Below, piece by piece: positions 7,911-58,227 of a stretch of DNA of 64,000 nt. This stretch comes from Streptomyces spinoverrucosus (GTDB lineage Bacteria > Actinomycetota > Actinomycetes > Streptomycetales > Streptomycetaceae). The stretch lies in the NCBI RefSeq assembly GCF_015712165.1, contig NZ_JADPZX010000001.1, forward strand, positions 1,302,001 to 1,366,000, written 5' to 3'. The position numbers were made by a program, and so were the translations under genes. The notes under the pieces are model-generated. The model did no database searches. It had not been told where the DNA came from and saw only the letters and a list, made by a program, of their open reading frames with translations. The number at the start of each line of letters is the position of its first letter. The stretch's first letter is position 1.

Positions 7911-7911
7911 A

Positions 7912-42629: not shown

Positions 42630-42860
42630 TCAGCCCTGGGGAGAATCTGGGGAGTTTCGGCTGGCATGCAAATCTCCCTGTCTCGCCAGTAGTCCATCGA
42701 TGGCCGTCCGCCCCTTGCTTCCGGCCTCCGGCATGAAGTGAGCATAGTAACCGAGGGTGACCGCCGGCATCCACGTGTTGCGCTCGGGGCCGGCCATCCG
42801 CCACCGGTCGGGGCGGCCCTGCTTCTCGGCCGCCCAGTCCTCACTGGCCATCCGCCGCAT
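42630..42860 (-). pseudogene. tyrosine recombinase (phage-type integrase), C-terminal remnant
   Basis: Reads TWMPAVTLGYYAHFMPEAGS then KGRTAIDGLLARQGDLH, the terminal segment of a tyrosine integrase with the nucleophilic Tyr in the LxxYxH motif. Only about 60 recognisable residues; the upstream part of the enzyme is replaced by the 3' end of the beta-helix gene. A scar of a mobile element at the edge of the octose cluster. Confidence 0.65.
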
Positions 42861-45216
42861 ACACCTCGAAGGCGGAGAGGGCCGCCCCAGCCCAGGCGGT
42901 GTTGTCGGTGACCTGTAAACGGACGAACCGAGCCGTGCGGGTGAGCGGGAGGACGACGGTGTTGCGCTGCTCCGGAGCGAATCGGCAGGTTACAGCGGGG
43001 GTGGCGGGTATGAGATCGGCCTCTGCGAGACCGATGTGGACTGCCAACGTCTCGGTACGCTCATCCCAGCTCTGCGGAGTTCGCAGGACGATGCGTGCGA
43101 GAGGCACGGGCTCGCCGAGGTCCACCTGGAGCCATTGCGGAAACCCCATGCCGTCGCTCTGCCACCACGTCCTTTCGGTGCCGTCGACGGCGGCTTCGGG
43201 CGGGAAGCCTCCCATGGCCGTACTTGCTTTGACGCGTCGCCCGAGAGCCCTGTCACCAGTGGGGTCGAAGCCGACGCCGGTCAGGTCGACGTGGAGCGGA
43301 CTGCGGGGTGCGTTCGAGTGCACGGTGAGTACGCCGGTACGCCGGCCGGCACGTGAGGGAGTAAATCCCACGGTGAAGGCCGCACTTGCTCCGGGCGCGA
43401 CAGTAACCGGGATGGGCGAGGTGGCGGTGAAGTCTCCGGTGAGTTCGACCTGTTGGACGAAGACTTGTCGGGGACCGGGATTGTGGAGTTCCAGGCGTTG
43501 AGGAGCGCCGACGGTGAGCGGCGTGGTTGCTCCGAAGTCGAGGCGGGTGACTGACGCGTAAAGGGCACCGTCCGGCGGCAGATCGGCCAACTCTTCGTCC
43601 CAGCCTTCATTGCCCGCTCCGCTGAGGAGATCGAATTCCGGAGCGGCGCGGTGTACCCCGGTCACGCCGAGCCGGACGGCGCTGACGCGGGCGAAACGGG
43701 CGGATCCGGTCGCCTCCAGTTGGACCGCGCAGGTGCCCGCGCCCTCGATGGTCATCCCGTCCACATCCACGCCGTCGATACGGCCACCGCTCAACTGCAC
43801 GGCCGCGTAAGCACTATTGGTCAGGATGTTCCCGCTGACGGTCACGTCACCCGTCATGGGCGCGTCCTCTGCCAGCAGCCATAGGGCGCCCACTCCCGCG
43901 CGATATTGAGGATGGTAGGAACCGGTCCGGATCAGCGAGTTCCCCTCGACGAGGGTTTTCCCCGCGATGGGAACAGCGCCATAGCGGTTGGCGATGTGGA
44001 TCCCGCCACCCTCCGCGACCGAGTCGGCCAGCAGGTTTCCCGTGATCCGGTTGTCGTGACCTCCGTAGACGGCGATGTGATTGGCCAGCATCGGCAGCAT
44101 GATGGTGTTCGCGTGCACGGTGTTGTGGTGGGTCGCCAGCCCGTCGGACCACAGGGCGATGGCGTCGTCGCCGGTGTTGCGTATGTGGCAGCCGGTGATG
44201 GTGACGTCCGAGACTCCGCGGTGCAGATTGATGCCGTCCGCGGTCGTGTTCATGATCCGGACGTTCCGGATGGTCAGGTCCTCGAAGGGTCCGTCCAGCC
44301 ACATTCCGCACTTGGTGTGGGCGATCCACACATCCTCGATGGTGGAACCGCCGCCCAACGCGCCTCCGATTCCGTTGTGTTGCGCCGCGTCGTCGCGCTC
44401 GGTGACATCACCGAAGATCGCGACCCCGGACAGGTGCACGCCGGTGCTGGGGCGGGGCGCCGGGTGGCCGTACAGACCGACGCCGGCGCCGCGCAGTTCG
44501 GTGTACCAGGGGCCGGCGCCGCGGATCGTGACACGGTCCAGGAGGATGTGGTCGGTCACCGCATAGATGCCGCGGGGCAGCCAGACGGTGCGCTCGGTAC
44601 CGGTGGCTGCCTCGACAGCGGTTCGGATGGCCGAGGTCGAGTCGGCCGTACCCGTCGGGTCCGCACCGAAGTCGAGCACGGACAGGGCGTCCTGCGGCGG
44701 GGATGCCGGTCCACCGGTCTCCTCGAAGCAGGCGATGTCGACGGTGACCGGCACTTCCGCCTCGGCCGCGGGGCGCAGAGTGACGCGTGTGCCCGGCGGG
44801 CATGTCCGGCCGAGGAGTACGTGCACGTCGTCGTAGAGATGGTGTGCCCGGCCTGCTGCCGGGTCGTTGGTGAACGGATATCCGCCGTAGTACCAGGAGT
44901 AGCGGGAGCTCAGGGTCAACCGATGGCATTCCTCCCCGTCGATGTGCAGGACCAGCCGTTCGGTGCGGCCGCCGCCCGTGGGGGCGTCGGGCAGCGAGTA
45001 GCGCAGGGTCAGCGCGTCGGCGGGAGCCACCAGGTGGAATTCGACGTACTCGTTCGGACCGGAGAGCCGTACGACGGCTCGGGCCACCGATTCGTCGACC
45101 AAGCGGGCATGCGGTCCGGAGGCGTCGACGCGTGTGCCGTTGGTCCGGGCGTCCGCGGCCCGGTACAGGTCCGGGCCCCTCTCCGCTCCCGCGGTACGGG
45201 CGGGGTTCGTGGTCAT
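42841..45216 (-). CDS. GH87 (mycodextranase)-like beta-helix protein with F5/8-type C domain
   Basis: 791 residues. Order: N-terminal carbohydrate-binding beta-sandwich (LRYSLPDAPTGGGRTERLVL, SWYYGGYPFTNDPAAGRAHH), right-handed beta-helix from LDFGADPTGTADSTSAIRTA (TIRGAGPWYTELRGAGVGLY, HTKCGMWLDGPFEDLTIRNV, NTTADGINLHRGVSDVTITG, RNTGDDAIALW), an Ig/SPD-2-like domain (HNPGPRQVFVQQVELTGDF) and a discoidin domain (TWWQSDGMGFPQWLQVDLGE). GH87 enzymes cut alpha-1,3-glucan outside the cell, but no signal peptide is seen. ATG 45216 overlaps the permease stop. Role in the cluster unknown. Confidence 0.75.
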   Translation of the reverse strand: MTTNPARTAGAERGPDLYRAADARTNGTRVDASGPHARLVDESVARAVVRLSGPNEYVEFHLVAPADALTLRYSLPDAPTGGGRTERLVLHIDGEECHRLTLSSRYSWYYGGYPFTNDPAAGRAHHLYDDVHVLLGRTCPPGTRVTLRPAAEAEVPVTVDIACFEETGGPASPPQDALSVLDFGADPTGTADSTSAIRTAVEAATGTERTVWLPRGIYAVTDHILLDRVTIRGAGPWYTELRGAGVGLYGHPAPRPSTGVHLSGVAIFGDVTERDDAAQHNGIGGALGGGSTIEDVWIAHTKCGMWLDGPFEDLTIRNVRIMNTTADGINLHRGVSDVTITGCHIRNTGDDAIALWSDGLATHHNTVHANTIMLPMLANHIAVYGGHDNRITGNLLADSVAEGGGIHIANRYGAVPIAGKTLVEGNSLIRTGSYHPQYRAGVGALWLLAEDAPMTGDVTVSGNILTNSAYAAVQLSGGRIDGVDVDGMTIEGAGTCAVQLEATGSARFARVSAVRLGVTGVHRAAPEFDLLSGAGNEGWDEELADLPPDGALYASVTRLDFGATTPLTVGAPQRLELHNPGPRQVFVQQVELTGDFTATSPIPVTVAPGASAAFTVGFTPSRAGRRTGVLTVHSNAPRSPLHVDLTGVGFDPTGDRALGRRVKASTAMGGFPPEAAVDGTERTWWQSDGMGFPQWLQVDLGEPVPLARIVLRTPQSWDERTETLAVHIGLAEADLIPATPAVTCRFAPEQRNTVVLPLTRTARFVRLQVTDNTAWAGAALSAFEVYAADGQ

Positions 45217-46025
45217 GCGCGCAGGATCCTCTCCACTCTGTGGCCGGCGAGGAGCAGCCCTGCCGCCATCAGGACGAGCAGGTAGACGCCGGGGAGTGCC
45301 GTGGCCCCGCCGACCGTGTCGAGCGACAGGCTCCGGACCAGGTCGACGGCCTGGGCCAGGGGCGTGCACTGAGCCAGGAGACCGAGTGCCACGGGATAGC
45401 CGTCAGTCGGCGTGAAGGTGCCGGAGAAGACGAACATGCTGAAGGTCACCAGGTTGACGCGGTCGAAGTCGTGCGTGCCTCGCAGGAACGTGGAAAGAGC
45501 CAGCCCCACCGCCGAGAACGCGGCGCTCACCAGCAGGGCCGCGATGAACAGCGCGGGCAGGCGGGCAAGTTGGACCAGGTCGAGAGCGCACATGAAGGCC
45601 AGGAACGACACGGCGTGCACGGCACTCGTGGCGACGGTCCACAGCATCTCGCCGCAGACGATCGCGAGTGAGGAGACAGGAGTGCACGCCGTGGCATCGT
45701 GGAGCTTCGTCATCCTGAGCCTGGTGAAGAAGGTGAACGTCGACTCCGATACGGCACCGTTCATGAGGGAGGACGCGAGCATCGCCGGAGCCACGAACGT
45801 GGCGTAGCCGACCGTGTGGCCGTAGACGCTCAGGTCGCCGACCAGGGTGCCGACGCCAAGGCCGATCGCGCCGAGAAAGAAGACGGGCTCGAAGAGTCCG
45901 GACAGCAGGACCCACAGGTAGGACGCATGGCGGGCCGCCTCGACGTTGCGCAGGAACACCGCCCAGACATGGGCTGGTCGGACGGTTTCCATCCGGCCCG
46001 GCGCCGCGGCAGTGGATACAGGCAC
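45213..46025 (-). CDS. ABC-2 type transporter permease (second)
   Basis: 270 residues, about six membrane spans (LWVLLSGLFEPVFFLGAIGL, PAMLASSLMNGAVSESTFTF, LVTFSMFVFSGTFTP). GTG 46025 has AGGAGG four bases upstream. DrrB/NodJ-like; with the ATPase and the other permease it should export the cluster product or a precursor. Confidence 0.84.
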   Translation of the reverse strand: MPVSTAAAPGRMETVRPAHVWAVFLRNVEAARHASYLWVLLSGLFEPVFFLGAIGLGVGTLVGDLSVYGHTVGYATFVAPAMLASSLMNGAVSESTFTFFTRLRMTKLHDATACTPVSSLAIVCGEMLWTVATSAVHAVSFLAFMCALDLVQLARLPALFIAALLVSAAFSAVGLALSTFLRGTHDFDRVNLVTFSMFVFSGTFTPTDGYPVALGLLAQCTPLAQAVDLVRSLSLDTVGGATALPGVYLLVLMAAGLLLAGHRVERILRA

Positions 46026-46033
46026 AAACCCTC

Positions 46034-46807
46034 CTAGTCCGAGAGGCGTCGAGAGAAGGCGCGGCAGGCGAGAGCGAGCCCGGCGACGGCCCAGGCAGCC
46101 AGACAGAGCAGGTCGACGACCGCTTCCAGGGCGGTGCCGGAACCGAGCAGCAGCATGCGGGACAGGTCGGCGGCGTGCGCCAGGGGCAGGGCCAGGACAA
46201 CGGCATGGAGGAGGGCCGGCAGGACGTCGAGCGGGAAGTAGACGCCGCTGAACATGGCCATGGGAACGATGCCGATACGGAAGAGGACGTCGAACATCCC
46301 GGCGCTCCGCACGGTGGCACTGAACGCCATGACCGGAGCGGCGATCGAGACGGCGAACAGTGGCAGAAGCGGGACGACTGCCAGTGCGGTCCACCGGTGT
46401 CCGACGCCGAAGAACTCGATGACGATCAGGAAGCTGAGTCCGCCGAGGGTCGCGCGCCCGACGACCGCGGCCAGATGCCCCATCAGGATGTCCGCGGGCC
46501 TGACCGGTGTCAGTCGCATGGCGTGGTAGATACGGCTCCACTCGAAGCCACCGAAGACTGCCCAGGCGGACTCCGCGGCGCCGATCTGGACAACAGATGT
46601 GGCCAGAAGTCCGGCACCGACGAAGGAGAAGTAGGAGACGCCGAGTTCGGGCTGGTCACCGACGTACCGGCCCACCGACCAGCCTATGCCGGTGAGCAGG
46701 CACAGTGGCAGCAGGAACGAGTTGAACACCGAGTCGAGCCAGGTACGGCGGTAGCTGGTGAACAGGTGCGCGGTGACGGCGACAGCTCGGGAATCGAACA
46801 AGGCCAC
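46034..46807 (-). CDS. ABC-2 type transporter permease (first)
   Basis: 257 residues with six spans (SFLLPLCLLTGIGWSVG, FVGAGLLATSVVQIGAAES, LFRIGIVPMAMFSGVYFPLD). Paralogue of the next permease; both have the late FSG(x)Y/F(x)P ABC-2 motif. GTG 46807 follows the ATPase stop by two bases. The two likely form a heterodimer. Confidence 0.83.
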   Translation of the reverse strand: MALFDSRAVAVTAHLFTSYRRTWLDSVFNSFLLPLCLLTGIGWSVGRYVGDQPELGVSYFSFVGAGLLATSVVQIGAAESAWAVFGGFEWSRIYHAMRLTPVRPADILMGHLAAVVGRATLGGLSFLIVIEFFGVGHRWTALAVVPLLPLFAVSIAAPVMAFSATVRSAGMFDVLFRIGIVPMAMFSGVYFPLDVLPALLHAVVLALPLAHAADLSRMLLLGSGTALEAVVDLLCLAAWAVAGLALACRAFSRRLSD

Positions 46808-46809
46808 GG

Positions 46810-47736: not shown

Positions 47737-47931
47737 GTGTCGTAGTTCCTTCCACTGTCTTCGTGGGTGTGGGCTGCGGCCTGTGCTGATGCCGTCCCGT
47801 GCGGGTTCGACACGGAACAGAGGTGCTTGCGGCCGGTGGGCCGGAGGGGGTGCCGGCCAGGCAGACGGACCCCCGCGGCCCAGGTGCCATCGATCTCGGA
47901 CCGGCGACGAGACACGTCCGCACTTCGGTTC
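47737..47931. other. 195-bp gap inside the octose operon
   Basis: The only gap over 40 bases in the 15-gene run. A minus-strand frame starts at ATG 47935, overlapping the glycosyltransferase stop as ATGA (MRTEVRTCLVAGPRSMAPGP...), but it has no stop before the ATPase gene and overlaps it out of frame. Another frame from GTG 47915 gives 73 residues ending at 47694. Neither resembles a known family. Confidence 0.35.
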
Positions 47932-49242
47932 TCATGCCGGCGCTCCGCTGCGCGGAGGAGCGCCGACCACCGACAGATGCCGGTCGAGCATGGCCTGGAA
48001 GGAGCGCCGCCAGTTCGTGCGGAAGTCGTGTTCCCGGCGGGCTCGCGCCAGGGCCGCCTGGCTGAGGTCCACCCTCTCCTTCGGGGTCAGCTCGGTTACG
48101 GCTGTGAGCATGGCGGTCGCGTCAGCGGTTTCCCGGCCGGCTGCCACCAGGCCGCTGACACCGGGTTCGACGAGCTCCGGGTAGACGCCAGTGGGCAGTA
48201 CGGCGACGACGAGGCCCTTCCCGTTGTTCATCAGCGCGGCCTCCACGGGGGTGACGGAGGCGGCTTCCCGCTCGGACAGGAAGGCCGCGGACAGGGTTCT
48301 CGGCCATTGGCAGAGTGCGGTGAGGACTCGGTCGTCCTGACCGTGGAGGAGCACGGCCGGTGATCCGGTGTGCCGGACGTGCTCCTCCAGATCAGCGTAG
48401 GGACGTGGGTTGAGGATCACCGGGACCAGCCGGTTCCCGGCCAGGCGAGCGGCGTCGACCAGCCTGTGGAAGCCCTTCTCCGCCACCCCCCGGCCCCAAC
48501 TGACGACCAGGTCCCGGTCCGTGGGGATTCCGAGCCCGCGCAGGAGTGCGGGGTCCGGCGGGCCCGGCCGGAACTTGGCGGCGTCGGTGGGCACGCCGGC
48601 ACGGGCGTAGAGGGTTTTGCCGTCCGGGATGCCGTAGACCTGCTGATACTGGTGGCGCATCCAGTGCGACTCCCAGCCGATGCACACGCGGGGGTCCGAT
48701 CGGGCCAGGTGTCCCATCACCGAGTCGGCGTAGGTCTCGGGCAGCTCGGCGTCGCCGTCGGGGCGTAGGACGGGGTTGTGGGTCATGTGCACATAGCTCG
48801 CCGCGAGGCCGAACTGGTCGGCGGCCCGGACGACGAAGCGTGCGGCCATGGCGAACATGCTCATCCCGGAGATGACGAGGAGGGAGTCCGCCTCGCGTCC
48901 CACCGTGAGAGCGACTTGACCGGCCGCCGAGCCGAGGGCCATGCAGTGCTCGAAGTGGTCCACCTCCCAGCTGTGGGCTCGCGGGTCGGCCAACGGGTGA
49001 TAGCGCACGGCTCCGCGGTGGACATAACGGTCCAGGGCCTGGGCGAAACGCTTCTCGTCCAGCCCCGCGCAGTTGGCACGTTCGGCGACGTGCCACTCGA
49101 CCTGAACCCCTCGTTCGTCGGCGATCGCGGCGACGTCGTCACGGGAATCGAGGATGTTGTGGATGTACCGGGCCACGCCGCCGTCGACCTGTCGGAAGCC
49201 TTCGTTGGTCAGGAGCAGAACCGCCAGCCGGTGGTCAGGCAT
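47932..49242 (-). CDS. glycosyltransferase (GT4-like)
   Basis: 436 residues. N-terminal acceptor half (LLLTNEGFRQVDGGVARYIH), then the donor half with VVSWGRGVAEKGFHRLVDAA, NPRPYADLEEHVRHTGSPAV and the late E-x7-E segment REAASVTPVEAALMNNGKGL typical of GT-B retaining enzymes. ATG 49242 has AAGGAG upstream (TTG 49245 is rejected). Probably transfers the nucleotide-activated octose made by neighbouring genes. Whether it is a counterpart of LmbT, which attaches ergothioneine in lincomycin biosynthesis, cannot be settled here. Confidence 0.78.
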   Translation of the reverse strand: MPDHRLAVLLLTNEGFRQVDGGVARYIHNILDSRDDVAAIADERGVQVEWHVAERANCAGLDEKRFAQALDRYVHRGAVRYHPLADPRAHSWEVDHFEHCMALGSAAGQVALTVGREADSLLVISGMSMFAMAARFVVRAADQFGLAASYVHMTHNPVLRPDGDAELPETYADSVMGHLARSDPRVCIGWESHWMRHQYQQVYGIPDGKTLYARAGVPTDAAKFRPGPPDPALLRGLGIPTDRDLVVSWGRGVAEKGFHRLVDAARLAGNRLVPVILNPRPYADLEEHVRHTGSPAVLLHGQDDRVLTALCQWPRTLSAAFLSEREAASVTPVEAALMNNGKGLVVAVLPTGVYPELVEPGVSGLVAAGRETADATAMLTAVTELTPKERVDLSQAALARARREHDFRTNWRRSFQAMLDRHLSVVGAPPRSGAPA

Positions 49243-50152
49243 CAAGCTCCTTGAGGACGGCGTCGAACCCGTGCTGGTAGAGATAGGCCACGACGAGCCG
49301 GTTCAGGCCGATGCCGCAGCACCCGCTCCACAAGTCCTGGCCTTCCGCGGTGATGTGGAAGCTCTCGGTCTGGTGGGTGCCCTCGGCAGAGCAGCCGGAG
49401 ATCTCCCGGAGGTCGAACCGCTCGTCGAAGTGGTCGGCCCAGCCCGGGCGGGCCCGCTCGGGGCGGTTGCTACTGAGGGGGACCTCGATGTCCTGCACAG
49501 GCACCTCGTCGGCGGTCTCCGCGTCGTCCTGCGCCTCGACGAGGGAGGGTATTTCCATGCAGCCCTCGGCAGCCACGACCTGCCAGCTCAGTCCCCAGCC
49601 GGAGAGGAGCTCGGTCAGGGTCTGGCGCACCTGGCCGCGGGTCGCGCGGACCTGCTCTCGGGTGCCGAAGAAGACATGCTCGACGCGAAGGAACTCGCGC
49701 GCCTTGATGGGGCCGTCCAGGTCCGCGGCGTACTCGTTGCGCCAGGTCCAGCCACCGAGGGTCTCCACTATGCGCAGCGGCAGCTCGTCCAGCGACAGCT
49801 GCCGGCCGCGCATGAGGTGGTAGAGGCTGATGCACTGGACCGGGTCGAGGACCTGGTCGCCGTCCGGGCCGGCCGGCACGAGGAGTTCGGGCGCGTACTG
49901 GCTCAGCCGGAAGTCGTCCAGTGCCTGACGCGGGATCAGGCGCGGGAACAGCCACTCCTCGAAGTCATTGGCGTAGGCACGTTCGAGTATCTCGCTCTGC
50001 AGGCGTCGCAGCAGGCGGACCCAGGGGGCGCGGTAGACGTACTGGCCCTCCGCGAAGTTCTCGATCCACTTTCGGTCCAGCGCTTCGACCACGACGTCGC
50101 CGCCGTGCAGGTCGCCGAACTCGGATATGTCGAGAATGGTGCCGAGCTTCAT
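49235..50152 (-). CDS. class II aminoacyl-tRNA synthetase-like protein (possible amino acid ligase)
   Basis: 305 residues, catalytic core only, no tRNA-binding N-terminal arm. Class II motif 2 WTWRNEYAADLDGPIKAREF (Arg138-Glu140), motif 3-like GCCGIGLNRLVVAYL (Arg285). Cys107, Glu153 and Cys254 are spaced like the Cys-Glu-Cys zinc ligands of methanogen-type SerRS and of the SerRS-derived amino acid:carrier protein ligases. ATG 50152 overlaps the HAD stop (ATGA) and has AAGGAG upstream. It should activate an amino acid as adenylate. The acceptor (carrier protein, tRNA or sugar amine) is unknown; no carrier protein gene is seen nearby. Confidence 0.7.
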   Translation of the reverse strand: MKLGTILDISEFGDLHGGDVVVEALDRKWIENFAEGQYVYRAPWVRLLRRLQSEILERAYANDFEEWLFPRLIPRQALDDFRLSQYAPELLVPAGPDGDQVLDPVQCISLYHLMRGRQLSLDELPLRIVETLGGWTWRNEYAADLDGPIKAREFLRVEHVFFGTREQVRATRGQVRQTLTELLSGWGLSWQVVAAEGCMEIPSLVEAQDDAETADEVPVQDIEVPLSSNRPERARPGWADHFDERFDLREISGCSAEGTHQTESFHITAEGQDLWSGCCGIGLNRLVVAYLYQHGFDAVLKELDA

Positions 50153-50775
50153 CGGGCTGACTCCTTGGGTGAAGGGGTTCCGTTTGCGTGCCGGGCGGTT
50201 TGGGAGCGGCGGTGGCGCAGCACGGTGTGGGCGGCTTCCAGGAGATTCGAGGCGTAGTGGACTCCGGTCACCGTGCTGGCCCACGGCGGGGTGCGTGGAC
50301 TGAGCAGGACCGCGGTGCACCCGGCGTTCAGACCGGCTTGCGCGTCGGTGGGACGGTCCCCGACGAGGTAACTGCCGGCGAGGTCCACCGACAGGTCGAC
50401 GGCAGCCTGGCGCAGCAGAACGCTGGAGGGCTTGCGGCACCGACAGCGGTGCCGCGCGCTGTGCGAGCACACGTAGACGCCGTCGAGTCGGCCCAGTCGG
50501 CGGTGCATCCGGTCGAGCGCGGAGCGGTCGAGCAGTCCCCGGGAAAGGTCGGGCTGGTTCGTGAAGAGGGCGATCAGGGCGCCGGCCGCGCGCAGCTGAG
50601 TGAAGCACTCCTGGACGCCGGGCAGAGCGGTCCATTCCTGTGGGTGGCGCGGGGAGGTGCGCCGCCCCCTCCGTAGGACGTGGGTGTTGAGCGTGCCGTC
50701 CCGGTCGAAGAACACACACCATCCCCGGCCCCGTACGGCAGCGGTCAGCTGTTCCACAGGTCCACCGACCTCCAC
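50149..50775 (-). CDS. lmbK-like: LmbK/GmhB-like HAD phosphatase (octose 1,8-bisphosphate phosphatase homologue)
   Basis: 208 residues. HAD motif I VFFDRDGTLN (Asp24, Asp26), motif II FTNQPDLSRG, zinc loop CSHSARHRCRCRKP as in GmhB, motif III VGDRPTDAQAG. In lincomycin biosynthesis LmbK removes the terminal phosphate from octose 1,8-bisphosphate, giving octose 1-phosphate. GTG 50775 overlaps the LmbL-like stop by 31 bases; GTG 50757 is an alternative. Confidence 0.85.
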   Translation of the reverse strand: MEVGGPVEQLTAAVRGRGWCVFFDRDGTLNTHVLRRGRRTSPRHPQEWTALPGVQECFTQLRAAGALIALFTNQPDLSRGLLDRSALDRMHRRLGRLDGVYVCSHSARHRCRCRKPSSVLLRQAAVDLSVDLAGSYLVGDRPTDAQAGLNAGCTAVLLSPRTPPWASTVTGVHYASNLLEAAHTVLRHRRSQTARHANGTPSPKESAR

Positions 50776-52049
50776 CCGTGCGGGGTCGGTACGCGGCTGC
50801 GGCGCTCCGCACCCGTCAGCCGCAGCAGCAGGGTGTGCCGCGGGGTGGCGCTCTCGAAGAACGCCGGGTCGGTGAAGGCCGGATGCTCCACGGTCAGCAC
50901 CACGCAGTCGGCGTCGGCCACCGCCTCGGTGAACGTGGTGCAGCGGTGCACGTCCTGGAGGTCGGCGGTTTCGGCGATCGGATCGTAGGCGGTGACCCTG
51001 GCGCCCTGTGCGAGCAGTTCGTCCGCCAACCGCAGGGCCGCGGAGTCGCGGAGCGTGGACACCCCGGGTTTGTAGGTCAGACCGAGCAGGCAGACCGTCC
51101 GTTCGGCGACGCCTTCGAGGTGCTTGTCCAGGGCCGCCAGCGGTGCCAGCGCGTGGACGGCGTTGGCATGGGCCACGGCGCGGAAGAGGCCGTCACGGCC
51201 GATGGGTTCACCGTGTTCCACGAGGGCCCGCACGTCACGGTGCAAGGTGGCACCCGCGTACGGTTCTCCGGGTCGCAGCGGGGCGCCGGCGGCGACACGC
51301 TCGTCGGCGCGGACGCCATCGAGGACCGTCACCGGATCGGCGCCGAGATGACCGGCGACGGTCCCCAGGTCGTTGGCGAGGGTGATGCACAGGGCGAGAT
51401 AGGCGTTGGTGCCGTGTTTCACCAGCTCCGCCTCGACGAGCCGCATGCGCAGTTCGTCGCGGGAACCGAGGCGGTCCAGCAAGTCGCGTACGGCTTCGGG
51501 CAGATGGGGAGAGTTGCACCCTACGACGGTCCGTACGGGGTGGAGGAAGTCGGTGACCGCTCGGCCCAGGCGCAGGTTCTCGGGAATGTGGATGAGGTCG
51601 GGGCTGTCGGCCGACAGGCCGGCGGTGGCGAGGGCGGCGTCACAGGTGCCCGCGCGGAGCTGACTCGCGACGACCACGGGCCCGCAGCGCCGGTGGCTCC
51701 CCAGCAGTTGGCGCAATGCGGCGACGGGCCGCCGGTCAGTGACGGTGCCGTCGGCGGCGGTTCCGGTGTCGTGGACGACGAGGCTCATGTCGGCGTGCCG
51801 CAGGACCTGAGCGACCTGCGCCTCGTCGAGCACCGGCCGCAGGGTTCCCTTCTCATGCGCGGTGGCAAGGATTCCCGCGACTTCGGGTTCGTCGCCGCAA
51901 CGGCGCCCGCGGACGAGGGCGTCGAAGGCTGCCCGGTCCGGCGTTTGCAGAGCGTCGGGCCGTATGTGGACCGTGTAGCCGAGCTGTGCCAGCCCGGCGG
52001 CGGTCACCGACGCGAGGTGCCAGTCGCCGACCAGGAGGACGTCAGGCAT
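50745..52049 (-). CDS. lmbL-like: LmbL-like UDP-glucose/GDP-mannose dehydrogenase family protein, catalytic Cys missing
   Basis: 434 residues. Family fold retained: central AELVKHGTNAYLALCITLAN keeps Lys211 and Asn215, and the C-terminal domain has VCLLGLTYKPGVSTLRDSAA. But where family members have GGSCFPKD the protein reads AGATLHRD (265-272), so the nucleophilic Cys is Thr268. The N-terminal nucleotide loop is VGDWHLAS in place of GxGxxG. A four-electron oxidation to a uronic acid is thus unlikely; a two-electron alcohol-to-ketone step or a non-catalytic role fits better. Sits in the LmbL position between K and M homologues. Confidence 0.83.
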   Translation of the reverse strand: MPDVLLVGDWHLASVTAAGLAQLGYTVHIRPDALQTPDRAAFDALVRGRRCGDEPEVAGILATAHEKGTLRPVLDEAQVAQVLRHADMSLVVHDTGTAADGTVTDRRPVAALRQLLGSHRRCGPVVVASQLRAGTCDAALATAGLSADSPDLIHIPENLRLGRAVTDFLHPVRTVVGCNSPHLPEAVRDLLDRLGSRDELRMRLVEAELVKHGTNAYLALCITLANDLGTVAGHLGADPVTVLDGVRADERVAAGAPLRPGEPYAGATLHRDVRALVEHGEPIGRDGLFRAVAHANAVHALAPLAALDKHLEGVAERTVCLLGLTYKPGVSTLRDSAALRLADELLAQGARVTAYDPIAETADLQDVHRCTTFTEAVADADCVVLTVEHPAFTDPAFFESATPRHTLLLRLTGAERRSRVPTPHGWRSVDLWNS

Positions 52050-53001
52050 GCTCGGCTTCGCCTATCTGGCGGCGTACCGCCTCGCGGACGGCTTCCTCGG
52101 ACTCCCGCGAGCTGTGCCAGCCCATGGAGTGGGCCGTGGACAGGTCGAACTCCACCACCGGGACGTCGCCGGGCCAGCCTCGCTTGCCGCCGCCGTATTC
52201 GATCTCCGCGTCAAGACCGAGTTCTTCCAACACGATCGCGGCGATCCTGGCGACGGTGACGGTCTCGGTGGAGCCCAGGTTGGCGACGAGGATGTCGGTC
52301 TTCGCCGCGGCGGCCAGGTCGACGATGCCGCGGGCGCAGTCCTCGGCGAGGAAGTAGTTCTTGCGCTGGTGTCCGTCGCCCAGGATGTGGAGTCGGCTCG
52401 GGTCGTCGCGCAGCTTGTTGAGGAAGTCGTGGATGACTCCGTGGTTCATGCGTCCGCCGACCACGTTGCCGAAGCGGAAGATGCTCGCCCGGAAGCCGTA
52501 GAGGTGGCAGTAGGAGGAGATCAGCGCTTCGGCGCCGAGCTTGGCCGCGCCGTAGACGGAGATGGGCAGCATGGGGCCGTGGTGCTCGGCGGTAGGGCGC
52601 TGCGCGAGTTCGCCGTAGACGGTCGAGGAGGAGGAAAAGACGATCTGTCCCACGTCGGCCCGCCGCATGGCCTCAAGGACTGAGCGGGTTCCCAGGACCG
52701 ACTGTTGGATGTCGACCCAGTTGTCCTCGAGGCCGACGCGCATATCGACGCTGGCGGCGAGATGGATGACCTGGTCCACGCCGTCCGACATCAGCTCGGT
52801 CAGCCGGTCGGTTTCCAGGACGTCCAGTTCGTGGAGGACGACGGTGCCGTCACGCTCGTGAGGTTCGATCCAGCTGCGGGTGGTGTTGGAGAAGTTGTCG
52901 ACCACCACCACGGGTGTGCTGTCCGCGGCGACCAGGTGGTCGACGACATGGCTTCCGATGAAACCGGCGCCGCCGGTCACCAGGGTGCGAGGTCGGGTCA
53001 T
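52042..53001 (-). CDS. lmbM-like: LmbM-like NAD-dependent sugar-nucleotide epimerase
   Basis: 319 residues, extended SDR. TLVTGGAGFIGSHVVDHLVA at the start, FSSSSTVYGE with catalytic Ser, YGAAK (Tyr150, Lys154), FRFGNVVGGRMNHGVIHDF. Acts on the nucleotide-linked sugar, as LmbM is thought to do for GDP-octose. ATG 53001 overlaps the SIS-protein stop (ATGA), and the 3' end overlaps the LmbL-like gene by 8 bases. Confidence 0.86.
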   Translation of the reverse strand: MTRPRTLVTGGAGFIGSHVVDHLVAADSTPVVVVDNFSNTTRSWIEPHERDGTVVLHELDVLETDRLTELMSDGVDQVIHLAASVDMRVGLEDNWVDIQQSVLGTRSVLEAMRRADVGQIVFSSSSTVYGELAQRPTAEHHGPMLPISVYGAAKLGAEALISSYCHLYGFRASIFRFGNVVGGRMNHGVIHDFLNKLRDDPSRLHILGDGHQRKNYFLAEDCARGIVDLAAAAKTDILVANLGSTETVTVARIAAIVLEELGLDAEIEYGGGKRGWPGDVPVVEFDLSTAHSMGWHSSRESEEAVREAVRRQIGEAEHA

Positions 53002-53606
53002 CGCTTTTCTCCATCGGTGAGGGCGAGGCAGAGGGCGTGCGCGACGAGAAGGTGCACGGACTCGATACCGGGCGTAGCGAGCGGCTCGCGGTCCAGCGGG
53101 ACGTTGATGTGCACATCGGCCAGATCGGAGGTGGCTCCCCCGTCGAAGCCGGTCACGGCGATCACCGCGGCGCCTTGTTCGCGGGCGAAGGCGGCCAGCT
53201 CCACCAGGCCGCGTGAGACGGAGCCGTCGCGGGCGCCGCCGTGCACGGAGAAGAGCACGACGGCGTCGCGGGCGCCGGCGTGGCTGGGCAGCCATGGTTC
53301 AGCCAGGTGAGCCAGGGCCAGGCCGGGGTCGTCGTCATTGGTCCACGCCGTGTGGCAGGCGATGTTGTCCAGCAGGGCGACGGCGCGTAGATGCGGCTCG
53401 TGGGGGGTGCGGGTGAACTTGGTCAGGTCGGCGGCGAAGTGGGAGGCGGTGGAGCTGGAGCCGCCGAGCCCGGCGGTCAGGACGACACCGCGAGTGGCAC
53501 GGCAGTCGGCGAGCACCCCTGCGGCCGCGGTGAGCGCCTCCGTGTCCAGGCCGGCCGTGACGGTGGCGGCTGCGTCGCGGAGGGCTGTGATGCTGGACAG
53601 ACTCAT
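52998..53606 (-). CDS. lmbN-like: LmbN-like (GmhA-type) SIS-domain sugar-phosphate isomerase
   Basis: 202 residues. TAGLGGSSSTASHFAADLTK (46-63) matches the GmhA phosphate loop, and VHLLVAHALC near the end holds the active-site His. In lincomycin, LmbN converts octulose 8-phosphate to octose 8-phosphate; it also carries an N-terminal carrier-protein domain, which is absent here. Overlaps both neighbours by four bases. Confidence 0.85.
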   Translation of the reverse strand: MSLSSITALRDAAATVTAGLDTEALTAAAGVLADCRATRGVVLTAGLGGSSSTASHFAADLTKFTRTPHEPHLRAVALLDNIACHTAWTNDDDPGLALAHLAEPWLPSHAGARDAVVLFSVHGGARDGSVSRGLVELAAFAREQGAAVIAVTGFDGGATSDLADVHINVPLDREPLATPGIESVHLLVAHALCLALTDGEKR

Positions 53607-54607
53607 GGTGTCTCCTTCGTGACGGGGGTCCAGCGGCCGGCGTGGGTGGAGCGGTAGGCGGCCTCGACGACGGCGAGGGCACGTCGGCCGGCCGGATCAG
53701 GGGGCGGCGTGGGGTCCTGTGCGGCCGTCTCCCGGAAGTGGGCCCATTCCGCGGCCCAGGACCGGTCGGCGCCACGGAACCGTGTGACGTGCGCGCCGAA
53801 CGGCCCGTCGTCGCGGCGTTCGACCGTCAGGGTCTGCTCGCCGTAGGAACCGGTCAGTCCGTCGATCCGCACGGTGGCACGTTCGAAGGTGACTTCGAAC
53901 AGGAAGCGGTTGTGCCACTGGCTCAGGCTGCTGCGGATCATGGCCACCTGGCCGGCGGCCGATCGCAACATGACGTGGGCGTCGTCCTCGATCCCGGTCG
54001 GCAGACCGAACGAGTGCTGGGTGTGAGCGATCACGTCGTCGATCGGCCACAGCAGGGCGTCGATGAGATCGATCAGGTGAATGCCCTGTTCCATCAGCTG
54101 CCCACCCGACACGATGCCCGGGTCAGCGCGCCATTCGTCGGAGTAGCCCTCGCGGATGCCATAGCCGTACACGCCCAGGGCTGAGAGGGTTGCGCCGTAT
54201 TCGTCATCGGCCACGATCTGGGCCAGAGCACGGACAGCGGGGTGGAATCGGTGGTTGAACCCGCAGTGCAGGAGCCTTCCGTGGTCGAGTGCCGCGGCCT
54301 CCATCCGGGCCGCCTCCTCGCTGCCGCGGGCGAGTGGCTTCTCGCACAGGACGTGCTTGCCGGCGGTGAGAGCCGCGACGGTCGCCGCGAGGTGGGTGTC
54401 GGGTGGCGTCGCGACGATGACCGCGTCCAGTCCGGGCTGCGCGAGGAGTTGGTCCCAGTGGTCGAAGACGCGGGTCCTGACCGAGTGGGCACGGGTCCGT
54501 GTTTCGTTCAGTTCGGGTGCGGCGATGCCGACCAACTCGTCGTCCGCGGCCAGTGCCGAAATACGCCGCCTGCACTGTAGTCCCGCACCGATCACGCCGA
54601 CGCGCAT
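53603..54607 (-). CDS. lmbZ-like: LmbZ-like Gfo/Idh/MocA oxidoreductase
   Basis: 334 residues. MRVGVIGAGLQCRRRISALA gives the NAD(P) site, HVLCEKPLARGSEEAARMEA the EKP motif, GGQLMEQGIHLIDLIDALLW the metal/substrate helix. ATG 54607 has GAGGGG upstream, preferred to ATG 54622. The celesticetin homologue CcbZ is, as I recall, fused to a carrier protein; this protein starts right at the Rossmann fold, so none is present. Likely redox partner in forming the 6-amino group. Confidence 0.84.
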   Translation of the reverse strand: MRVGVIGAGLQCRRRISALAADDELVGIAAPELNETRTRAHSVRTRVFDHWDQLLAQPGLDAVIVATPPDTHLAATVAALTAGKHVLCEKPLARGSEEAARMEAAALDHGRLLHCGFNHRFHPAVRALAQIVADDEYGATLSALGVYGYGIREGYSDEWRADPGIVSGGQLMEQGIHLIDLIDALLWPIDDVIAHTQHSFGLPTGIEDDAHVMLRSAAGQVAMIRSSLSQWHNRFLFEVTFERATVRIDGLTGSYGEQTLTVERRDDGPFGAHVTRFRGADRSWAAEWAHFRETAAQDPTPPPDPAGRRALAVVEAAYRSTHAGRWTPVTKETP

Positions 54608-55620
54608 GTGTCCCCCTCGCATCGGCTGGGCTCTGCCGTCGACTGGGTGCTGTCAAGGCCCTGTTGGGAGATGCGTAAGGGGACATGTGTGAGCCCGAGG
54701 CCGTCCAGGAAGGCCCGGGCGCGATCAAGGCGAGTGGGGTCGGCCGCGATGAGCACGTGCCCCCCGCCTCCGGCGCCGATCAGTTTGAAACCGGTTATTC
54801 CGTCAGTGTCACGGGCCTGTCCGATCCGTCGGCACACGGGATGGTCGGTGGCCGGGTTGGCGGCTGTCTTTCGGGCCCAGTGCGCCCGCAGGGCCGAACC
54901 GACCACGGCGATGTCACCGCTCAGGAAGGCTTCCTCGGTGAGCGCCGCGGCGGCTGTCGCCTGACGGTGGTGCTCGGCAGTGACTTCCGGGGCCCGGGAC
55001 AGGACGCGGGAGGCGTCGCGGGTGCCGGGAACCCGGTAGAGCAACAGGCCGTTGTCGATGAGCCGGGCCAGCGCGGAGCACAGGGCGGGGCTGGGGGTAG
55101 CGGTGACGGACCCGTCGGGTTCGAAGCCAAGGCGCTGCGCGCCGCCCAGTGCGGCTACCCAGGCGTCTTGCTGTCCGATCGTGCGGCCGAGGACTTCGCG
55201 TTCGAGCCGGAACGCGAGAGTAGCGGTTCTGTACGGTGGCAGAGACTGACCGCTCCAGCGAGCGAGCGCGTCGACGAGGGCGACGGAGTAGGCGCCGGAA
55301 CCGCCGAGGCCCGAACCGGGCGGTACGAGGGAGCCCACGGCGATGCTCGGCAGGCTCCTCAGTCCGAGGACGACTCCCGCGGCCGCGGGATACGGATGCC
55401 GCGCGGTGTCAGCGGGCGGCAAGAGGTACTGCCAAGTGGTGTCTGACGCGTTCAGTTCGGCCAGCGCGCAGGCCGGCCGGTCGGCGACGCTGACGTGAAC
55501 ACGCAGCGGTAGGGCGGCCGCTACGACAGTGGTGGGGCCGTGCCGGTAGTACTCGGGTAGGTCGGTGCCTCCGCCGGCGATGCTGATGCGCATGGGAGCG
55601 GAGCTGCGAACCGTCGTCAT
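54592..55620 (-). CDS. lmbP-like: LmbP-like GHMP sugar-phosphate kinase
   Basis: 342 residues. SSAPMRISIAGGGTDLPEYY is the start typical of the heptose-kinase (HddA) branch, LVPPGSGLGGSGAYSVALVD the ATP loop, FKLIGAGGGGHVLIAAD the C-terminal GHMP motif. LmbP phosphorylates C-1 of octose 8-phosphate. ATG 55620 overlaps the nucleotidyltransferase stop by one base; a GTG at 55656 is possible. Confidence 0.86.
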   Translation of the reverse strand: MTTVRSSAPMRISIAGGGTDLPEYYRHGPTTVVAAALPLRVHVSVADRPACALAELNASDTTWQYLLPPADTARHPYPAAAGVVLGLRSLPSIAVGSLVPPGSGLGGSGAYSVALVDALARWSGQSLPPYRTATLAFRLEREVLGRTIGQQDAWVAALGGAQRLGFEPDGSVTATPSPALCSALARLIDNGLLLYRVPGTRDASRVLSRAPEVTAEHHRQATAAAALTEEAFLSGDIAVVGSALRAHWARKTAANPATDHPVCRRIGQARDTDGITGFKLIGAGGGGHVLIAADPTRLDRARAFLDGLGLTHVPLRISQQGLDSTQSTAEPSRCEGDTCASA

Positions 55621-56402
55621 CAGCGCTGTCTCTCGGCTCGGGAGGGCGTGGAGCACGGCCCGCTGGGAAGGTCGGCCAAGGTGGCGCAGGCGTGCCGCCA
55701 GCGATCCGGGGTGCCGATCTCGATGATCGGCTCGTCACAGATCCAGTGGGCGAGCCGACGCTGGGCGGCGAGGGCCCCGAAGAACGGACTGTCGCTGTCG
55801 CCGGGATGGGACTCCAGCGCGTCCCGGCGAAGGAACCGGACCCCGCGGTCGATGTACGGTGCGGCGGATCTCTTGTCGTAGCGGGCGACCCACGGACCGT
55901 CGACGCTGATGTTGCCCGGGTCGTGCGAGCGGCTCTCGGGGGCAACGGACATGACGGCTTGCGCCTGTTGTTGATGCAGGATGCCGCTGAGGGCTTGCCA
56001 TAAGTCCCTTCTGTCGGGCGGAAGGACGTCGCCGAGGACGAGGAGGAATTGCTCGTCGAGGTGTAAGACCGCTTCGCGCAGCGCACCGACGGGACCGGCG
56101 GGAGTGGCCTCGACGAGGACCTCCACGCGAAGAAGTGCTTCGGTTCCGTCGGCTTCAGGAAGCGGATTGGATGGCGACTCTCCCTGGTGAGGCGGCCGCC
56201 ACGCGCGGGCCAGCTCCTGTACGGAGTGGGCGTCGTGTCCCGCAAGGAGCAGGACCCGGTCGACAGGCGGCCGGACGGACCGATCCAGTACGTGGCTCAG
56301 GAAGGGACGACCGGCGACGGGAACCATGCACTTCTGCACGCCCCCGCTGACCGCGGCCATCCGGGTGCCGAGCCCGCCACAGAGAATGACCAGCTGGGTC
56401 AT
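55620..56402 (-). CDS. lmbO-like: LmbO-like sugar-1-phosphate nucleotidyltransferase
   Basis: 260 residues. LVILCGGLGTRMAAVSGGVQ then KCMVPVAGRPFLSHVLD (Lys24) is the pyrophosphorylase signature, with LLVLGDVLPPDRRDLWQAL as the metal-binding Asp region. LmbO makes GDP-octose from octose 1-phosphate and GTP; the base used here is inferred by homology. The protein ends in an unrelated Ser/Arg tail. Confidence 0.85.
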   Translation of the reverse strand: MTQLVILCGGLGTRMAAVSGGVQKCMVPVAGRPFLSHVLDRSVRPPVDRVLLLAGHDAHSVQELARAWRPPHQGESPSNPLPEADGTEALLRVEVLVEATPAGPVGALREAVLHLDEQFLLVLGDVLPPDRRDLWQALSGILHQQQAQAVMSVAPESRSHDPGNISVDGPWVARYDKRSAAPYIDRGVRFLRRDALESHPGDSDSPFFGALAAQRRLAHWICDEPIIEIGTPDRWRHACATLADLPSGPCSTPSRAERQR

Positions 56403-57565
56403 CGCACACCGGCAGCGCGCCGAAGTTCATCTGTCAGGGCCGCCATGACGGAGTCCGCATCCTCGTTCGTCATCGCCGGAAAGATCGGGAGCGACAGAAG
56501 TCTTCGGTAGGCGGCGTCGGCAACGGGAAAGGCCTGTGCTGCGGAGGGCAGTTCGGCACGGTAGTAGCTGAACTGGTGCAGCGGTCTGAAGTGGACGCTG
56601 GTTCCGATGCCGCGTTGGCGGAGCCGGTCCGCCACGCCGTCACGGTCGACGCCCTCGGGCAACTGGACGGCGTAGAGGTACCACGATGAGCTGTCCTGTG
56701 CGGTGTCGGCGAGCGGCAGCAGCAGGCCGGTCAGGGAAGCGAGACCTTTCGCGTAGCGCTCCGCGATCGCACGCCGCCGTTCGTGCAGCACGTCGCAGCG
56801 ATCCAACTGGCAGCGCAGGAGCGCTGCGGCCACGTCCGGCATGTTGTATTTCATGCCGGCCGCGACGACGTCGTAGTGGGGTGACCGTCCCTCGTGATGC
56901 CGTGCGAACGCGTCGCGATCGATGCCGTGGGCGCTCAGTGTCCGGGCTCGTGCCGCCAAGTCCGCGCGATTGCAGACCAGAAGGCCGCCTTCAGCGCTGG
57001 TGAGTGGCTTCGTGACGAAGAACGAGAACGCCGTGGCGTCGGCAAGTCGGCCGGGCGTCACCCCGTCACGTTCGGCGGGCAGAGCGTGGGCCGAGTCCTC
57101 GATCAGGGCGAGGCCGTGTTCGTCGCAGAGGTGGCGTAGTGCCCGCATGTCAGCCATGCGGCCGGCAAAGTGAACGGCCATCACCGCGCGTGTGCGTCCG
57201 GTGAGGTGCCGTCGCACCTGTTCCAGGTCGATGGTGAGCCGGTGCGGCTCGACATCGACCAGCACAGGGGTGGCGCCAGTGTGCACAACCGTGGCAGCGG
57301 ATGCCGTGAAGGTCGTCGTAGGCACGATGACCTCGTCGCCCGGACCCACCCCGAGCGCCAGTAATGCGAGATGCAGTGCCGCGGTACCGGAGTTGACCAG
57401 CAGGGAGTGCTCGACGCCGAGGTATCGGGTGATGCGGTTTTCGGTGTCCCGCGCGACGGAGCCCGTGCCGATCCATCCGCTGCGCAGTACCTCGGTGACG
57501 GCGGATATCTCCTCTTCGCCGATGAGGGGGGCCGCGAACGGCACCTGCGCCGGGCCCTCGGTCAT
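56399..57565 (-). CDS. lmbS-like: LmbS-like DegT/DnrJ/EryC1 sugar aminotransferase
   Basis: 388 residues, PLP-dependent. LRSGWIGTGSVARDTENRIT, NSGTAALHLALLALGVGPGD, IEDSAHALPAE (Asp157) and SFFVTKPLTSAEGG with PLP Lys186. Adds the amino group to a keto sugar nucleotide, as LmbS does for the 6-amino group of lincosamide. ATG 57565 overlaps the transaldolase stop (ATGA). Confidence 0.88.
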   Translation of the reverse strand: MTEGPAQVPFAAPLIGEEEISAVTEVLRSGWIGTGSVARDTENRITRYLGVEHSLLVNSGTAALHLALLALGVGPGDEVIVPTTTFTASAATVVHTGATPVLVDVEPHRLTIDLEQVRRHLTGRTRAVMAVHFAGRMADMRALRHLCDEHGLALIEDSAHALPAERDGVTPGRLADATAFSFFVTKPLTSAEGGLLVCNRADLAARARTLSAHGIDRDAFARHHEGRSPHYDVVAAGMKYNMPDVAAALLRCQLDRCDVLHERRRAIAERYAKGLASLTGLLLPLADTAQDSSSWYLYAVQLPEGVDRDGVADRLRQRGIGTSVHFRPLHQFSYYRAELPSAAQAFPVADAAYRRLLSLPIFPAMTNEDADSVMAALTDELRRAAGVR

Positions 57566-58227
57566 GTGACGAGTCCCTTGGCATCCGTGGCGAACTGACG
57601 GGCCATTTCCACGCTGCGTGGGTGGTCGATCCACTTCTCCAGGACGGCCGGGGGCACCGTCACGATGTCGCAGGGCGTGTCGAGCGCCGCGGTGACGTCG
57701 GCGGGCTCGCGGATGCTCCCGATGACCAGGCGCGTGCCGGTGCTGGTCAAAGCGCGGCGGGCGGTCACCGCACGAACCACCTGGGCAGGGTCCTCCCCCG
57801 CGTCGCGCGTGCGGCACCAGAGAAGGCTCAGATACTCGGGCTGCAACAACAGCGCCGCGTACAGCTCGGCGCGCGAGGTACAGACGGTGACATTCACCTT
57901 GACCCCGGCGTCACGCGCCCGACGGATGAGTCCCGCCCGGCACTGTCCTGCCGAGGTCACGAACGGGATCTTCACCCGAACTCGTGGATCGAGGCCGGCT
58001 AACGCGATCGCCTGCTGATAGGCATCCGCATCCGCTTCGGACAGGACCTGGGCATGCACTTCGGCGGTTCCACTGGCAAGGATGCGCTTCACGGCCGACG
58101 ACACCGACGTGGCGTCGGCCTTCGCCAAGAGGGTCGAATTGGTGGTTACGCCCTGGATGAGCCCGGTCTGTAACCAGTCGATGCAGTGCTCAGCCGTGGC
58201 TGAGTCCAAGTACAGCAAGTTATCCAC
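57562..58227 (-). CDS. lmbR-like: LmbR-like transaldolase
   Basis: 221 residues, the short TalC/FSA type. LYLDSATAEHCIDWLQTGLI, GVTTNSTLLAK, Schiff-base Lys86 in VRVKIPFV, KVNVTVCTSRAEL. In lincomycin LmbR joins a three-carbon unit to ribose 5-phosphate to give octulose 8-phosphate; if the acceptor here is erythrose 4-phosphate the sugar would be a heptose instead. First gene of the operon; GTG 58227, weak ribosome site, inverted repeats just upstream. Confidence 0.87.
   Translation of the reverse strand: MDNLLYLDSATAEHCIDWLQTGLIQGVTTNSTLLAKADATSVSSAVKRILASGTAEVHAQVLSEADADAYQQAIALAGLDPRVRVKIPFVTSAGQCRAGLIRRARDAGVKVNVTVCTSRAELYAALLLQPEYLSLLWCRTRDAGEDPAQVVRAVTARRALTSTGTRLVIGSIREPADVTAALDTPCDIVTVPPAVLEKWIDHPRSVEMARQFATDAKGLVT

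What the first reader, a model, noticed from the sequence alone, without database searches (positions are those of the whole stretch)
42841..58227. Lincosamide-like amino-octose operon with a new set of tailoring genes
Nine adjacent genes are, in window order, homologues of lmbK, L, M, N, Z, P, O, S and R, the same families in the order I recall for the lincomycin cluster. In lincomycin LmbR-N-P-K-O make GDP-octose and L, M, Z and S convert it to the amino sugar. Here they are joined in one start-stop-overlapped operon to an aaRS-like enzyme, a glycosyltransferase, an ABC exporter and a GH87-like protein. No propylproline, NRPS-like, carrier-protein, mycothiol or ergothioneine-processing genes are seen. 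The product should hold an amino-octose (or amino-heptose) but not be a classic lincosamide.
Basis: partly seen in the sequence, partly recalled or inferred. Interest (0 to 1): 0.96.

Follow-up and report, generated by a model that had tools for sequence, protein, structure and literature searches.

The report
Lincosamide-like cluster with synthetase-derived ligase
This Streptomyces genome carries relatives, in the same order, of the genes that build lincomycin's eight-carbon amino sugar, next to a tRNA-synthetase-like enzyme that likely replaces lincomycin's usual way of attaching an amino acid, so the cluster would make an undescribed lincosamide-like compound.

Summary
On the minus strand, 58227-42841 encodes homologues of LmbR-S-O-P-Z-N-M-L in the lincomycin order, then LmbK, a class II aaRS-like protein, a glycosyltransferase, a three-gene ABC exporter and a GH87-like protein. 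R, M, N, P, O and S are nearest to lincosamide clusters, well above generic sugar enzymes; K is not decisive, Z and L were not ranked. The glycosyltransferase is a homologue of LmbT, the ergothioneine S-glycosyltransferase (fold match 2.7e-33; next protein 4.8e-17), with Trp101 and Arg260 kept. A lincosamide-nucleotidyltransferase-like gene lies divergent to lmbR in 4 of 4 such clusters. No match to lincomycin's proline-activating, condensing or mycothiol-handling genes was found in the window, nor a carrier-protein motif around the operon. The aaRS-like protein (type-2 SerRS catalytic core, zinc ligands kept, no N-terminal domain) occurs in exactly the 4 of 392 Streptomyces genomes with this cluster type. 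Best reading: a third lincosamide branch in which a carrier-free class II ligase, working like MshC, likely makes the amide bond. Chemistry and product are predicted, not shown.

The parts
58417..58905 (+). lincosamide-nucleotidyltransferase-like gene (Lnu), divergent to R; predicted self-protection
   Evidence: NCBIfam Lnu(AN2) 150 bits, below its cut-off of 340; PF10706 160.8 bits; beside R in G206, G111, G077
57562..58227 (-). LmbR homologue, transaldolase
   Evidence: PF00923; 6 of 392 Streptomyces genomes; clade with lincosamide R 99/100
56399..57565 (-). LmbS homologue, aminotransferase
   Evidence: PF01041; G124/G314 410/390 bits, next 219
55620..56402 (-). LmbO homologue, nucleotidyltransferase
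   Evidence: PF12804/PF00483; G124/G314 77.5/63.1 bits, next 34.7
54592..55593 (-). LmbP homologue, GHMP kinase
   Evidence: PF00288; 177/173 bits, next 83
53603..54607 (-). LmbZ homologue, oxidoreductase; no carrier domain
   Evidence: PF01408; 45-47% identity to G124/G314; 334 aa against 427 in G124
52998..53606 (-). LmbN homologue, isomerase; no carrier domain
   Evidence: PF13580; 170/156 bits, next 59
52042..53001 (-). LmbM homologue, epimerase
   Evidence: PF01370; 361/344 bits, next 119; clade 100/100
50745..52049 (-). LmbL homologue, nucleotide-sugar dehydrogenase
   Evidence: PF03720/PF00984/PF03721; 39-48% identity to G124/G314 in the best stretch
50149..50757 (-). LmbK homologue, HAD phosphatase
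   Evidence: PF13242/PF00702; not decisive: 78 bits to G124/G314, 76 to G003
49235..50152 (-). class II aaRS-like protein (type-2 SerRS catalytic core); predicted amide ligase
   Evidence: 4 of 392 Streptomyces genomes, the four with this cluster type
47932..49242 (-). LmbT homologue; predicted S-glycosyltransferase using ergothioneine
   Evidence: 8ixp/8il0 at about 5e-49; fold match 2.7e-33; residues
46810..47736 (-). ABC exporter ATPase
   Evidence: PF00005; in 4 of 4 clusters
46034..46807 (-). ABC-2 permease
   Evidence: PF01061; in 4 of 4 clusters
45213..45992 (-). ABC-2 permease
   Evidence: PF12698; in 4 of 4 clusters
42841..45216 (-). GH87-like beta-helix protein, role unknown
   Evidence: PF22815/PF22816; in 4 of 4 clusters

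Best explanation
The block is a third branch of the lincosamide clusters: homologues of LmbR-S-O-P-Z-N-M-L and LmbK, predicted to make a GDP-amino-octose, stand beside an LmbT homologue predicted to move that sugar onto the sulfur of ergothioneine, and beside a seryl-tRNA-synthetase-like catalytic core that likely activates a small amino acid as its adenylate and joins it directly to the sugar's C6 amine. Shown: gene families and order; clade membership of R and M; nearest relatives of N, P, O and S; LmbT homology of the GT and conservation of its Trp101, Trp258 and Arg260; conservation of the three residues aligned with the zinc ligands of type-2 SerRS; no carrier-protein motif around the operon and no match to the other lincosamide genes in the window; co-inheritance in four Streptomyces genomes. 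Inferred: that the nine enzymes keep lincomycin's reactions; that ergothioneine is the acceptor (the genome has egtD); that the aaRS-like enzyme is a carrier-free amide ligase, a class II counterpart of MshC, in place of LmbC + carrier protein + LmbD; that the Lnu-like enzyme protects the producer; that the ABC genes export the product. No gene here is of the LmbV/E/Q/F kinds that exchange and trim the thiol in lincomycin, so the product might keep ergothioneine or be trimmed by enzymes coded elsewhere. Residues of LmbT's sugar side-chain pocket are altered, so the side chain may differ from lincomycin's.
For: Order and families. Lincosamide kinship. GT is LmbT-like with Trp101/Trp258/Arg260 kept. 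egtD in the genome. aaRS-like protein is a type-2 SerRS core with the three zinc-ligand positions kept; its distribution (4 of 392) equals that of this cluster type. No carrier domain on N or Z (against LmbN/CcbZ described in PMC4351081) and no match to one typed carrier motif in six frames of 41.0-60.7 kb. Precedent of a CysRS homologue joining amino acid and amino sugar in mycothiol: passage of PMC4351081. Lnu-like gene beside R in 4 of 4.
Against: No activity is shown for any of these proteins. K does not discriminate; Z and L were not ranked against generic enzymes. Trp101 is lost in 3 of 24 aligned window-type GTs, and Arg290, which binds guanine in LmbT, is Pro in 23 of 24. The residue aligned with Asn435 of M. 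barkeri SerRS (serine contact, recalled) is Gly, so the amino acid is unknown. Lnu-like genes are common (87 of 392 genomes), so adjacency is weaker than it looks. A carrier protein or LmbD/V/E relatives elsewhere in the genome were not searched for. The trees have some very long branches.
Confidence: 0.55

Rival explanations
1. Same amino-octose pathway, but the aaRS-like enzyme is an amino acid:[carrier protein] ligase that loads a carrier protein encoded elsewhere in the genome, and another enzyme makes the amide bond, as in lincomycin.
For: The carrier-protein ligase Bll0957 is a relative by sequence (1.8e-10) and fold (4h2s 2.5e-16).
Against: Type-2 SerRS is far closer (5.6e-54; 6.2e-25). 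No carrier motif around the operon and no LmbD-type match in the window. The rest of the genome was not tested.
Confidence: 0.17
2. Same pathway, but the aaRS-like enzyme aminoacylates something other than the octose amine, such as a hydroxyl or a tRNA whose amino acid is then used, and the product is a different amino-octose glycoside.
For: The sugar side-chain pocket residues of the LmbT homologue are changed, and two of the four clusters hold two further genes, so the acceptor may differ.
Against: An S aminotransferase homologue that would make the amine is kept and lincosamide-like; the protein aligns only from residue 177 of type-2 SerRS, so the N-terminal part (tRNA-binding, recalled) is missing.
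Confidence: 0.17
3. The product sugar is an amino-heptose or another amino sugar, made by enzymes that share ancestry but not reactions with LmbR-S.
For: R is only 34-36% identical to the lincosamide LmbR-type proteins; changes in the LmbT side-chain pocket.
Against: All nine families and the order of eight genes are kept; R and M form clades with the lincosamide proteins.
Confidence: 0.08
4. A capsule or cell-surface heptose operon of the GmhA/HddA kind, not a lincosamide relative.
For: NCBIfam matches N, P, K and O to heptose models, all below cut-off; K ties with a gene of a heptose-like cluster.
Against: Score, tree and order tests and the LmbT-type GT.
Confidence: 0.03

Closest known systems
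   Same: RSOPZNML in the same order, a K homologue, an LmbT homologue
   Different: No match in the window to the other proteins called in the G314 region, among them A-domain, methyltransferase, PmbA/TldD and LmbV-like types; K and the GT downstream of L; an aaRS-like gene, a Lnu-like gene, three ABC-2 exporter genes and a GH87-like gene instead
   Different: No carrier domain and no proline or salicylate genes seen here; identities 32-57%
MshC of mycothiol biosynthesis (CysRS homologue; precedent from a passage of PMC4351081)
   Same: Proposed work: an aaRS relative joins an amino acid to the amine of an amino sugar
   Different: MshC is class I (recalled), this protein is class II; function here is untested
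Type-2 (methanogen) seryl-tRNA synthetase, 3w3s and 2cim
   Same: Catalytic core fold and the three zinc-ligand positions
   Different: The first 176 residues of 3w3s have no counterpart; residue aligned with Asn435 is Gly
Lnu lincosamide nucleotidyltransferases
   Same: Family match over residues 2-153 of 162, 150 bits
   Different: Below the cut-off of 340 bits; beside a producer-type cluster; activity untested

Membership tests
Lincosamide-type amino-octose pathway | LmbR, N, P, K, O, M, L, Z and S homologues together | tested here: met
Lincosamide-type amino-octose pathway | nearest relatives are the lincosamide enzymes | tested here: met
   R, P, N, M, O, S met; K not decisive; Z and L not ranked
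Lincosamide-type amino-octose pathway | C8 product | not testable with these tools
   needs an enzyme assay
Classic lincosamide cluster | proline-type A-domain, carrier protein and LmbD condensation enzyme | tested here: not met
   no match in the window to proteins called in the G314 and G124 regions beyond the shared set, and no carrier motif around the operon; rest of the genome not tested
Classic lincosamide cluster | mycothiol exchange and trimming genes LmbV, E, F | tested here: not met
   no match in the window (rough gene calls, so LmbE and LmbF were not identified one by one); rest of the genome not tested
LmbT/CcbT S-glycosyltransferase | LmbT fold and sequence kinship | tested here: met
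LmbT/CcbT S-glycosyltransferase | ergothioneine contacts Trp101 and Arg260 | tested here: met
   both kept in the window; in 21 and 24 of 24 aligned proteins
LmbT/CcbT S-glycosyltransferase | sugar-pocket residues Phe161, Ser222, Gly339 | tested here: not met
   Thr (Pro in the HMMER alignment), Ala, Ala
Type-2 SerRS | three zinc ligands | tested here: met
   Cys107, Glu158, Cys278 align with Cys306, Glu355, Cys461 (roles recalled)
Type-2 SerRS | N-terminal tRNA-binding domain | tested here: not met
   305 aa; alignment starts at residue 177 of 3w3s
Amino acid:[carrier protein] ligase | partner carrier protein | tested here: not met
   no carrier motif in 41.0-60.7 kb; rest of the genome not tested
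Lnu lincosamide nucleotidyltransferase | score above the curated cut-off | tested here: not met
   150 against 340 bits; the model is of kind 'exception'
Lnu lincosamide nucleotidyltransferase | nucleotidylates lincosamides | not testable with these tools
   needs an enzyme assay

The most novel reading that the evidence does not exclude
A third class of lincosamides: an amino-octose thioglycoside of ergothioneine whose C6 amine is acylated by a carrier-free ligase derived from a class II aminoacyl-tRNA synthetase (a class II answer to MshC), with self-protection of the producer by lincosamide nucleotidylation, and with tailoring that varies between strains.
Probability: 0.4. Interest if true: 0.87.

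Novelty: new variant of a known kind. Interest (0 to 1): 0.74.

Why it matters
The parts of the lincosamide review that I read treat two pathways, lincomycin and celesticetin, and both form the amide bond with an A-domain, a carrier protein and LmbD/CcbD (PMC12945683, PMC4351081). A branch that does it with one aaRS-like enzyme would be a much simpler lincosamide synthetase and could widen the amino acids that can be attached. It would bring class II synthetases into natural-product amide formation on sugars. It also sets a lincosamide-nucleotidyltransferase-like gene beside a producer cluster, which makes the origin of that gene family testable.

Tried and rejected
Heptose or capsule operon: rejected by score, tree and order tests; K alone would not reject it.

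Lnu adjacency as proof of a lincosamide product: weakened, since Lnu-like genes lie in 87 of 392 genomes; at 70% identity or more they are those of the four clusters and one in G386, whose 3.4-kb locus matched no other cluster gene.

The MFS/spermidine-synthase-like gene 59154-60608, the NAD kinase gene and the HipA-like gene as cluster parts: queried and without a match in the fetched 30-kb stretches of the three relatives, so left out.

Surroundings of the aaRS-like relatives outside this cluster (97 proteins): not reached. LmbR and LmbT of S. lincolnensis by protein search: no hit bearing such a name (word-based candidates; one search scored only 7998); the genome-contig scan did not list a named lincomycin producer either; whole-genome search gave G314 and G124. 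Solved structures for S, Z and M gave no lincosamide enzyme.

Literature: the listings show no paper that describes this cluster type. The library holds open-licence papers only.

Full report
What is there. In the direction of transcription (minus strand, 58227 to 42841) the genes are: R transaldolase, S aminotransferase, O nucleotidyltransferase, P GHMP kinase, Z oxidoreductase, N SIS isomerase, M epimerase, L dehydrogenase, K HAD phosphatase, an aaRS-like protein, a glycosyltransferase, an ABC ATPase, two ABC-2 permeases and a GH87-like beta-helix protein. Of the 14 joints 10 overlap by 4-16 bp; the gaps are 26, 195, 2 and 41 bp, the 195-bp one before the ABC genes. The review PMC12945683 (first of five parts and section 9 read, passages seen) gives the lincomycin operon as lmbVTQRSOPZNML with lmbK apart. 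The eight genes RSOPZNML have the same order here.

Is it lincosamide-type? The protein search with R gave 69 hits, 18 of them at 51-100% identity and the next full-length one at 38%. G314 and G124 hold lincosamide-type clusters with the same gene order. In G314, gamma-glutamyltransferase, A-domain, methyltransferase, PmbA/TldD and mycothiol-isomerase-like genes lie around it; 10 of the called proteins were scanned, and 2 had no family. The 10.3-Mb size of G314, and its GT, which has the expected residue at all twelve LmbT positions that I mapped, point to a lincomycin producer. Best-stretch identities of the window's proteins to G314/G124 are 34-36% (R), 54-55% (S), 34% (O), 39% (P), 45-47% (Z), 52-54% (N), 56-57% (M), 39-48% (L), 38% (K) and 33-34% (GT).

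Rank test. I chose 30 genomes: the own one, G314, G124 and 27 others of the 392, without the three window-type relatives. The two lincosamide genomes gave the best non-self hits for P (177/173 bits, next 83), N (170/156, next 59), M (361/344, next 119), O (77.5/63.1, next 34.7) and S (410/390, next 219). For K the margin is nil (78.1/77.9, next 76.2 in G003). Z and L were not ranked. Trees put window-type and lincosamide R together (99/100; 4 + 3 rows) against 46 other aldolases, and M together (100/100; 4 + 2 rows) against 27 other epimerases; some branches are very long and the roots are midpoints. L shares with the G314 and G124 proteins a stretch that lacks the catalytic cysteine which I recall for UDP-glucose dehydrogenases (alignment).

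The glycosyltransferase. Its solved relatives are 8ixp/8ixq and 8il0/8ila at about 5e-49; a third match at 0.034 is chance. The model (mean pLDDT 89.8) matches six LmbT chains at E 2.7e-33 to 3.7e-31 (TM 0.81-0.89); the next protein is at 4.8e-17. LmbT moves the amino-octose from GDP to ergothioneine, and 8ILA is its complex. Of the residues named there, the window protein keeps Trp101 and Arg260 (ergothioneine), Trp258 and Gln313 (guanosine), Gly27, Tyr31 and Val341. It changes Phe161 (to Thr by MAFFT, Pro by HMMER), Ser222 (Ala) and Gly339 (Ala) of the side-chain pocket, and Thr289 (Asn, as in G124) and Arg290 (Pro). In 24 aligned window-type GTs (window, 3 fetched, 20; some strains twice) Trp101 is kept in 21 and Arg260 in 24. 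The genome has EgtD above the family cut-off. I infer that sulfur still comes from ergothioneine and that the sugar side chain may differ.

The aaRS-like protein. Profile search puts type-2 SerRS first (3w3s 5.6e-54, 2cim 1.8e-32) and the amino acid:[carrier protein] ligase at 1.8e-10; the fold search agrees (model pLDDT 92.5; 3w3s 6.2e-25, 4h2s 2.5e-16). The alignment starts at residue 177 of 3w3s. The residues aligned with M. barkeri Cys306, Glu355 and Cys461 (zinc ligands, recalled) are all kept; the one aligned with Asn435 (serine contact, recalled) is Gly. At E<=1e-10 the protein lies in 4 of 392 Streptomyces genomes, exactly the four with this cluster type, and at E<=1e-15 in 1 of 396 genomes of the phylum, the window's own. 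The protein search gave 97 relatives, the weakest at 30-31% identity; their surroundings are unknown. One typed carrier-protein pattern has no match in six frames of 41.0-60.7 kb, and N (202 aa) and Z (334 aa) are single-domain, whereas lmbN of lincomycin and ccbZ of celesticetin carry the carrier domain (PMC4351081, passages). The same paper names a CysRS homologue of mycothiol biosynthesis among single enzymes that join amino acid and amino sugar. I therefore propose a carrier-free amide ligase. Since the zinc positions are kept, the amino acid likely has a free amine.

Resistance and export. The divergent gene 58417-58905 matches lincosamide nucleotidyltransferases (Lnu(AN2) 150 bits, cut-off 340) and stands next to R in all four clusters (and window). 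Lnu-like genes as such are common (87 of 392 genomes); those at 70% or more are the four clusters' and one in G386, whose 3.4-kb locus shows no other cluster gene. The three ABC genes and the GH87-like gene are also in all four. The GH87-like protein has no hydrophobic N-terminus in 4 of 4; its role is unknown. G111 and G077 have about 2.1 kb more between GT and ABC1, with two genes that I read by eye as a GFO/IDH-like oxidoreductase and an aldo-keto reductase (no family scan).

What is missing. Proteins called roughly in the G314 and G124 stretches were searched against the window (E<=1e-6): apart from the shared set and two antisense ORFs within it, only ABC ATPases and a two-component system matched. 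Propylproline, A-domain, condensation, mycothiol-type and methyltransferase genes of lincomycin were thus not found in the window. I did not identify each Lmb protein one by one, and the rest of the genome was not tested for them.

Judgement. The pathway type is well supported (about 0.93). Sulfur from ergothioneine: about 0.6. Carrier-free amide ligation by the aaRS-like enzyme: about 0.6. The whole account gets 0.55, as the best single one. It is a new variant of a known kind, not a classic lincosamide cluster. The listings show no paper on it; the passages that I saw of PMC12945683, PMC4351081 and PMC11794154 do not mention it.

Noticed in passing
L012 4747-20648 (Rhodococcus sp. 06-235-1A): A distant lincosamide-like cluster outside Streptomyces: LmbT-, R-, S-, O-, P-, Z-, N- and M-like genes (29-57% to the window) with MDMPI (LmbV-like), PmbA/TldD, AMP-binding, methyltransferase and aminotransferase genes.
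   Followed up: partly
L072 about 11892-14037 and L074 about 7244-9365: In two of the four clusters (Ru62, NRRL S-340) two further genes lie between GT and ABC1, by eye a GFO/IDH-like oxidoreductase and an aldo-keto reductase.
   Followed up: partly
L127 (G386): A Lnu-like gene 70% identical to the cluster's, with no other cluster gene in its 3.4-kb locus.
   Followed up: partly
42841-45216: The GH87-like protein has no hydrophobic N-terminus in 4 of 4 clusters, odd for a glucanase-like protein.
   Followed up: partly
54592-58227: TTA codons in R (2), S (1), O (2) and P (1), and one in the GH87-like gene, which may make expression depend on the late leucyl-tRNA of Streptomyces.
   Followed up: no
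59154-60608: Gene matching the fused MFS/spermidine-synthase model (300.9 bits) beside the cluster; no match in the fetched stretches of the three relatives.
   Followed up: no
L079 and G003:C1:546671-551381: K-, P- and M-like genes close together in another Streptomyces genome, perhaps a heptose-type cluster; the nearest non-lincosamide hits for P and K.
   Followed up: no
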